Positions 10,894 to 41,138 of a DNA stretch of 64,000 bases are shown here, one piece after another. Location of the stretch: contig NC_058506.1 of assembly GCF_020382885.2 (NCBI RefSeq), positions 4,898,001 to 4,962,000 on the forward strand, written 5' to 3'. A program made the position numbers and the translations under genes. This DNA comes from Scatophagus argus (lineage: Eukaryota; Chordata; Actinopteri; Scatophagidae). The notes beneath the pieces were generated by a model. The model was given only the letters and a program-made list of their open reading frames with translations. It was not told where the DNA came from and did not search any database. Position 1 is the stretch's first letter. Every line of letters begins with the position of its first letter.

Positions 10894-41138
<30,245 letters not shown>

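What the first reader, a model, noticed from the sequence alone, without database searches (positions are those of the whole stretch)
19910..19921. A 12-nt in-frame microexon in the clathrin heavy chain gene
In the intron between cltc exons at 20435-20272 and 19079-18954, the minus strand shows a long pyrimidine tract, an AG, twelve bases (gacatgtatcag) and a donor gtaaat. Both neighbours join at phase 0, so inclusion inserts four residues (DMYQ) into the leg. Predictors usually miss exons this short. From memory, human CLTC has an isoform with four extra residues, which would make this a conserved regulated microexon.
Basis: partly seen in the sequence, partly recalled or inferred. Interest (0 to 1): 0.75.

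Follow-up and report, generated by a model that had tools for sequence, protein, structure and literature searches.

The report
Possible tiny exon in clathrin gene
A stretch of 12 bases inside a fish clathrin gene has the signals of a very small optional exon that would add four amino acids to the protein, but no RNA or cross-species evidence could be checked here, so it remains a credible candidate rather than a proven exon.

Summary
In a 30-exon clathrin heavy chain gene (minus strand), intron 14 holds AG|GACATGTATCAG|GTAAAT at 19921-19910, phase 0 on both sides; inclusion would insert DMYQ between K764 and E765. It beats local chance: it is the only strict in-frame 6-30 nt pair in 25.2 kb of this gene's introns (shuffles expect 0.08 per gene, real DNA of the same genome about 0.25). 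Upstream lie UGC and UC-type motifs, the published layout of Srrm4-type microexons.

Conservation, the interpretation's main support, was not found. Two paralogs in the same genome have 113- and 122-nt introns there and lack it. All 120 listed long clathrin representatives join K directly to E, though 90% clustering can hide isoforms. The human link could not be tested. By contrast, the known 7-residue exon-31 microexon is recognisable in all three paralogs (window 13929-13909).

A rival: the same donor could serve a 109- or 241-nt frame-breaking exon through stronger upstream acceptors. My estimate is 0.45 that the 12 bases are a real, probably regulated, microexon. Junction reads decide it.

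The parts
19910..19921 (-). Candidate 12-nt microexon GACATGTATCAG (DMYQ), phase 0 on both sides
19922..19962 (-). Its acceptor region: pyrimidine-rich tract (81% pyrimidine at -45 to -10) with UGC at -31 and -5, four UCUU/UCUC/CUCU matches within 50 nt, then AG
19904..19909 (-). Its donor GTAAAT (8.7 bits), the only donor of 6 bits or more in intron 14 besides that of exon 14
20272..20435 (-). cltc exon 14 (ends ...VKNFLK, phase 0)
18954..19079 (-). cltc exon 15 (starts EAKLTDQ...), with the weakest acceptor of the gene (-0.3 bits)
19910..20018 (-). Rival exon using the same donor: 109 nt, acceptor 10.0 bits, frame-shifting, contains a stop
19910..20150 (-). Rival exon using the same donor: 241 nt, acceptor 11.6 bits, frame-shifting, contains stops
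10897..41138 (-). Coding part of the clathrin heavy chain gene: 30 exons, 1678 residues without microexons (the assembly allowed only GT-AG introns)
13909..13929 (-). 21-nt homologue of the known CLTC exon-31 microexon, VDAVKEQ (internal control)

Best explanation
The 12 bases are a cassette microexon of one of the three clathrin heavy chain genes found in this fish. Inferred mechanism: it is skipped in most tissues because an exon of 12 nt cannot be defined by ordinary exon-definition contacts. Where an enhancer of the Srrm3/Srrm4 kind is present (neurons, retina, perhaps muscle), the UGC motifs at -5 and -31 and the UC-rich tract let it be joined between exons 14 and 15, adding DMYQ between K764 and E765. 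The insertion falls at the C-terminal end of a helix in a clathrin heavy-chain repeat of the leg, and would lengthen that helix end or the following loop by about one turn, a mild change of leg geometry or of a binding surface. Shown: sequence, splice signals, phase, chance estimates, layout, repeat and (in a model of modest confidence) helix position. Inferred: that it is ever spliced, the tissue, the regulator and the effect.
For: Signals and phase as described. It is the only strict in-frame candidate of 6-30 nt in 25.2 kb of introns of the gene; relaxing both thresholds by 2 bits adds only one more hit, the known exon-31 homologue. Upstream pyrimidine content of 0.81 is reached by 3 of 216 relaxed background hits in the same genome, and the combination UGC + at least four UC motifs + pyrimidines of at least 0.75 by 1 of 216; none of these four listings has strict splice scores. 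[quoted passage not shown] Zebrafish brain has 1882 microexons, so the class is not rare (passage of PMC7821500). A 501-base piece of the intron is single-copy in the genome search. The insertion point is the end of helix 46-55 of the modelled fragment, and the insert form still matches the Pfam clathrin repeat, 101.5 against 111.5 bits.
Against: No RNA evidence was available. Both paralogs lack it. No listed representative has it, although the exon-31 insert is visible in 8 of the 68 representatives in which that region was found (counted by eye). The acceptor is only 6.1 bits and better ones lie upstream. Strict hits occur at about 0.01 per kb of strand of the sampled genome, and pairs of equal summed score at about 0.05 (19 of 216 relaxed hits in 400 kb, one of them also with 80% pyrimidine), so thousands of look-alikes may exist. 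The layout features were chosen after seeing the candidate.
Confidence: 0.45

Rival explanations
1. A chance pseudo-microexon: a pyrimidine-rich, AT-rich intron supplies AG acceptors freely, and a CAGGTAAAT donor happened to fall 12 bases behind one. It is never spliced.
For: About 0.25 strict hits are expected per 25 kb of this genome, about 1.2 by summed score. Intron 14 holds six acceptors of 5 bits or more, the candidate's included. Absent from both paralogs and from the listed representatives.
Against: Only 0.007 expected in shuffles of intron 14 and about 0.012 from real DNA for an intron of this length. The canonical upstream layout is rare among background hits.
Confidence: 0.38
2. The donor at 19909 belongs to a longer optional exon (20018-19910, 109 nt, or 20150-19910, 241 nt) whose inclusion shifts the frame and brings in stops, lowering clathrin heavy chain mRNA through nonsense-mediated decay (poison exon).
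For: Both alternative acceptors score higher (10.0 and 11.6 bits against 6.1) and both lengths suit exon definition. Exon 15 has the weakest acceptor of the gene, as expected where inclusion competes with skipping.
Against: No RNA evidence either way; strong acceptors are frequent in this intron, so the pairing may be accidental. The UGC at -5 and the tract directly before 19921 are then unexplained.
Confidence: 0.12
3. The site works as an intermediate (recursive-type) splice point that helps to join exon 14 to the weak acceptor of exon 15 and leaves no residues in the protein.
For: CAG|GTAAAT has the form of a ratchet junction; exon 15 acceptor is weak.
Against: Read as an acceptor, the CAG at the end of the microexon scores -1.8 bits. 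The intron is only 1192 nt; vertebrate recursive splicing is known from very long introns (recalled).
Confidence: 0.03

Closest known systems
CLTC exon 31 (21 nt, 7 residues), muscle-regulated microexon of the trimerization region (Moulay et al. 2020; paper not held, known here from passages of PMC12064062, PMC7617313 and PMC10225744)
   Same: Same gene; short in-frame phase-0 cassette; same upstream pyrimidine content in the window gene (0.81 for both)
   Different: 21 against 12 nt; lies in intron 28 near the C terminus, not in the leg; recognisable in all three paralogs of this fish and in some fish, lamprey and bird proteins, while the 12-nt candidate was found in none of them
Srrm3/Srrm4-regulated neuronal microexons of vertebrates (zebrafish sets in PMC12626420 and PMC12626424)
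   Same: Length, frame, UGC plus UC-rich tract directly upstream
   Different: Those have RNA support and the studied sets are conserved between mouse and zebrafish; here neither was testable, and neither paper has the words cltc or clathrin in its main text
12-nt microexon of the L1cam family (passage of PMC7821500)
   Same: 12 nt, in-frame, connected with clathrin-mediated endocytosis
   Different: Cargo side (sorting signal bound by AP-2), not the coat protein; no sequence relation claimed

Membership tests
Vertebrate cassette microexon | Exon of 3-30 nt flanked by AG and GT | tested here: met
   12 nt
Vertebrate cassette microexon | Keeps the reading frame (multiple of 3, phase match, no stop) | tested here: met
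   Phase 0 on both sides, DMYQ
Vertebrate cassette microexon | Included in some mature mRNAs and skipped in others | not testable with these tools
   No RNA-seq reads; the 120 listed long protein representatives all show the skipped form
[quoted passage not shown]
   UGC at -5 and -31, UCUU motifs; definition from a passage of PMC12626420
Srrm3/4-regulated neuronal microexon | Inclusion depends on Srrm3/Srrm4 in neurons | not testable with these tools
   Needs RNA from wild-type and mutant fish
   C4 and C5 paralogs have 113- and 122-nt introns without it
   0 of 120 listed long representatives, but 90% clustering hides isoforms and no other vertebrate genome was available
CLTC exon 31 | 21-nt exon between the exons ending ...YLSK and starting VDKL | tested here: not met
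   That exon is a different one, 13929-13909
Clathrin heavy chain | Full-length gene coding for a clathrin heavy chain with its leg repeats | tested here: met
   30 exons assembled; 97.0% identical to P0006 (clathrin heavy chain 1, Salmo salar) over 1680 columns; exon 14 matches PDB clathrin chains over 54 of 54 residues; repeat PF00637 over the insertion region

The most novel reading that the evidence does not exclude
A lineage-specific neural microexon was born in only one of three clathrin heavy chain paralogs, inside an intron that is about ten times longer (1192 nt) than in the two others. The downstream acceptor is weak here and strong in the paralogs, which would have made inclusion switchable. 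It adds one helical turn at the end of a leg repeat, giving some fish neurons a second, structurally altered clathrin leg, independent of the known exon-31 switch at the trimer hub.
Probability: 0.22. Interest if true: 0.6.

Novelty: new member of a known kind. Interest (0 to 1): 0.4.

Why it matters
Clathrin heavy chain is very strongly conserved; the stretch around the junction was identical (KNFLKEAKL) in 119 of 120 listed representatives. The splice switch documented in the passages I read, exon 31, changes whether clathrin makes pits or flat plaques (PMC7617313). A second optional insert, in the leg, would be a new handle on lattice geometry in a defined cell type. It is cheap to test, because reads across the two new junctions are easy to recognise.

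Tried and rejected
Protein searches with the insert form at three lengths listed 120 matches each (of 2168, 845 and 150) and no protein with DMYQ or a four-residue insert at the junction. Eight listed fragments run on from NFLK into residues that look like an unspliced intron, so they are genomic readings, not isoforms. The negative is weak for the window gene: the six listed representatives closest to its protein (P0029, P0006, P0034, P0015, P0071, P0090; 96-97% over the aligned part) also lack the exon-31 insert, so they show skipped forms in general, and P0006 alone stands for 1329 members that cannot be read.

Fish DNA from other sources: viral contigs and genome contigs gave no relative. 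The own-genome DNA search with 501 bases of the intron found only the window itself, so that piece is not a dispersed repeat.

Literature: searches for CLTC or clathrin heavy chain with microexon, alternative splicing, 12 nt, isoform 2 and exon 31 showed nothing on a 12-nt exon in what I looked at, namely the listings (capped: 20 of 29 and 8 of 82 shown) and passages of PMC12064062, PMC5840707, PMC8638120, PMC7617313, PMC2654914 and PMC10225744. PMC2654914 lists a CLTC exon pair among platelet splice peptides; I did not find out which exons these are. The Moulay 2020 paper is not held.

Considered and set aside: a longer optional exon (kept as a rival) and a recursive splice site (weak).

Full report
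What is there. The window holds a clathrin heavy chain gene on the minus strand, 30 coding exons from 41138 to 10897, 1678 residues ending at a stop codon (the spliced alignment allowed only GT-AG introns, so that property is by construction). The protein is 97.0% identical to P0006, clathrin heavy chain 1 of Salmo salar. Exon 14 (20435-20272) matches PDB clathrin chains over 54 of 54 residues and ends at K764, phase 0; exon 15 (19079-18954) starts at E765. Between them, in a 1192-nt intron, the minus strand reads ...ttatcttttgtgcttttcttcttttgtctttgaaattgcag|GACATGTATCAG|gtaaat....

Is it more than chance? I scored splice sites with approximate vertebrate consensus matrices recalled from memory. 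The donor (8.7 bits) is better than 21 of the gene's 29 donors, the acceptor (6.1 bits) better than 7 of 29. Among in-frame, stop-free AG...GT pairs of 6-30 nt in the 29 introns (25.2 kb) this is the only one reaching both values; 25 shuffles of all introns gave a mean of 0.08, 300 shuffles of intron 14 a mean of 0.007. Relaxing both thresholds by 2 bits adds exactly one more hit: 13929-13909, GTTGATGCAGTTAAGGAACAG, VDAVKEQ. That is the homologue of the known exon-31 microexon, so the scan recovered a known microexon without being told of it. If 3-nt exons are admitted there is one more strict hit, ACG at 30587 in intron 2; over the whole window one search gave 4 strict hits of 3-30 nt on the minus strand (two inside exons 1 and 28, ending at their own donors) and 1 on the plus strand. 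Real DNA is a harsher control: 20 stretches of 10 kb of the same genome (400 kb of strand) gave 4 strict hits, about 0.25 per 25 kb. Counted by summed score (14.8 or more) they gave 19, about 1.2 per 25 kb, 1 of them with 80% pyrimidine upstream. A genome of 570.7 Mb must hold very many such look-alikes, so splice scores alone do not prove an exon.

Layout. The tract before the exon is 81% pyrimidine at -45 to -10, a value reached by 3 of 216 relaxed background hits and by 3 of the gene's 29 acceptors. UGC stands at -5 and -31 and there are four UCUU/UCUC/CUCU matches within 50 nt; 107 of 216 background hits have a UGC within 40 nt and 13 of 216 four such UC matches, but only 1 of 216 has both together with at least 75% pyrimidine, and it does not have strict splice scores. 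[quoted passage not shown] These features were examined after the candidate was known, so their weight must be discounted.

Conservation. The own-genome search found two more clathrin heavy chain genes. At the same junction their introns are 113 and 122 nt long, without the 12 bases and with strong exon-15 acceptors (11.8 and 12.3 bits against -0.3 in the window gene). The exon-31 homologue, in contrast, is present in all three ([21 protein letters not shown]). Protein searches with the insert form listed 120 long representatives (991-1701 residues, 37 of them under 1600) of 2168 matches, all 120 with a direct K-E junction (119 KNFLKEAKL, 1 KSFLKEAKL). Of 240 listed fragments (of 845 and 150 matches), 128 hold the upstream side by my pattern: 116 join directly, 4 join directly with substitutions or one residue fewer, and 8 run on into what looks like an unspliced intron; none holds DMYQ or a four-residue insert. 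The database is clustered at 90% identity, so isoforms are hidden. Among the 68 of 120 representatives in which the region before exon 31 was found, 8 show the exon-31 insert (P0003, P0010, P0011, P0012, P0021, P0030, P0075, P0094, counted by eye). The six representatives closest to the window protein do not show it; the closest that does is P0010, 96.0% identical, with VDAIKEK as in the C5 paralog. The absence of DMYQ is therefore mild evidence against. The four matching PDB sequences lack the insert. No other vertebrate genome and no RNA data could be consulted.

Consequence for the protein. The insertion lies within a Pfam clathrin repeat (PF00637), which tolerates it (111.5 to 101.5 bits). 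In a model of the insert-free fragment P0121 the junction K54/E55 is at the end of helix 46-55, followed by a loop (mean pLDDT 62 overall, 69 in the block 51-60). Four residues are close to one helical turn, a mild change.

Rivals. In intron 14 there are only two donors of 6 bits or more, that of exon 14 and the candidate's, but six acceptors of 5 bits or more, the candidate's included. The same donor could serve exons of 109 nt (20018-19910) or 241 nt (20150-19910), both with better acceptors, both frame-shifting and with stops: a possible poison exon. A recursive site is unlikely (-1.8 bits as acceptor).

Judgement. Real microexon 0.45, chance 0.38, poison-exon donor 0.12, recursive site 0.03. 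The weighing is mine: zebrafish brain has 1882 microexons, of which 402 pair with mouse ones (passage of PMC7821500), so microexons without a known mammalian partner are ordinary, and lack of conservation lowers the case only a little. The checks made before this version (and the fuller telling) corrected wording and counts; I left the odds as they were, since the background figures had already been weighed. The claim of a conserved exon shared with a human four-residue isoform has no support in what I could examine; the microexon that the papers I saw document in this gene is exon 31, 7 residues (passages or legends of PMC12064062, PMC7617313 and PMC10225744).

Noticed in passing
window 13929-13909 (minus strand); L010 (C4 paralog) and L012 (C5 paralog): The 21-nt exon-31 microexon of clathrin heavy chain is recognisable in all three paralogs of this fish ([21 protein letters not shown]), and lamprey proteins (P0011, P0012, VDEMKAK) carry it too. 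The species list in the legend of PMC7617313 (human to frog) names no fish, so the exon looks older than that list.
   Followed up: partly
window 19080 (acceptor of exon 15): Exon 15 has the weakest acceptor of the 29 in the window gene (-0.3 bits), whereas the same exon has strong acceptors in both paralogs (11.8 and 12.3 bits); intron 14 is about ten times longer here than in the paralogs.
   Followed up: partly
window 20150 and 20018 (minus strand): Two strong acceptor-like sites (11.6 and 10.0 bits) lie in the same intron upstream of the candidate.
   Followed up: partly
P0094, P0030, P0075; L010 near 3185-3212: Exon-31 variants in other clades: VDGLFYK in a bird clathrin heavy chain 2, and fish forms followed by two more residues (VDEFAAKVT, VDALAEQVT). 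The C4 paralog reads gtgacg|gt right after its VDEFAAK exon, so a donor shifted by 6 nt would explain the extra VT.
   Followed up: no
window 30587 (minus strand, intron 2): A 3-nt AG|ACG|GT pair with strict splice scores (8.4 and 10.3 bits), not examined further.
   Followed up: no
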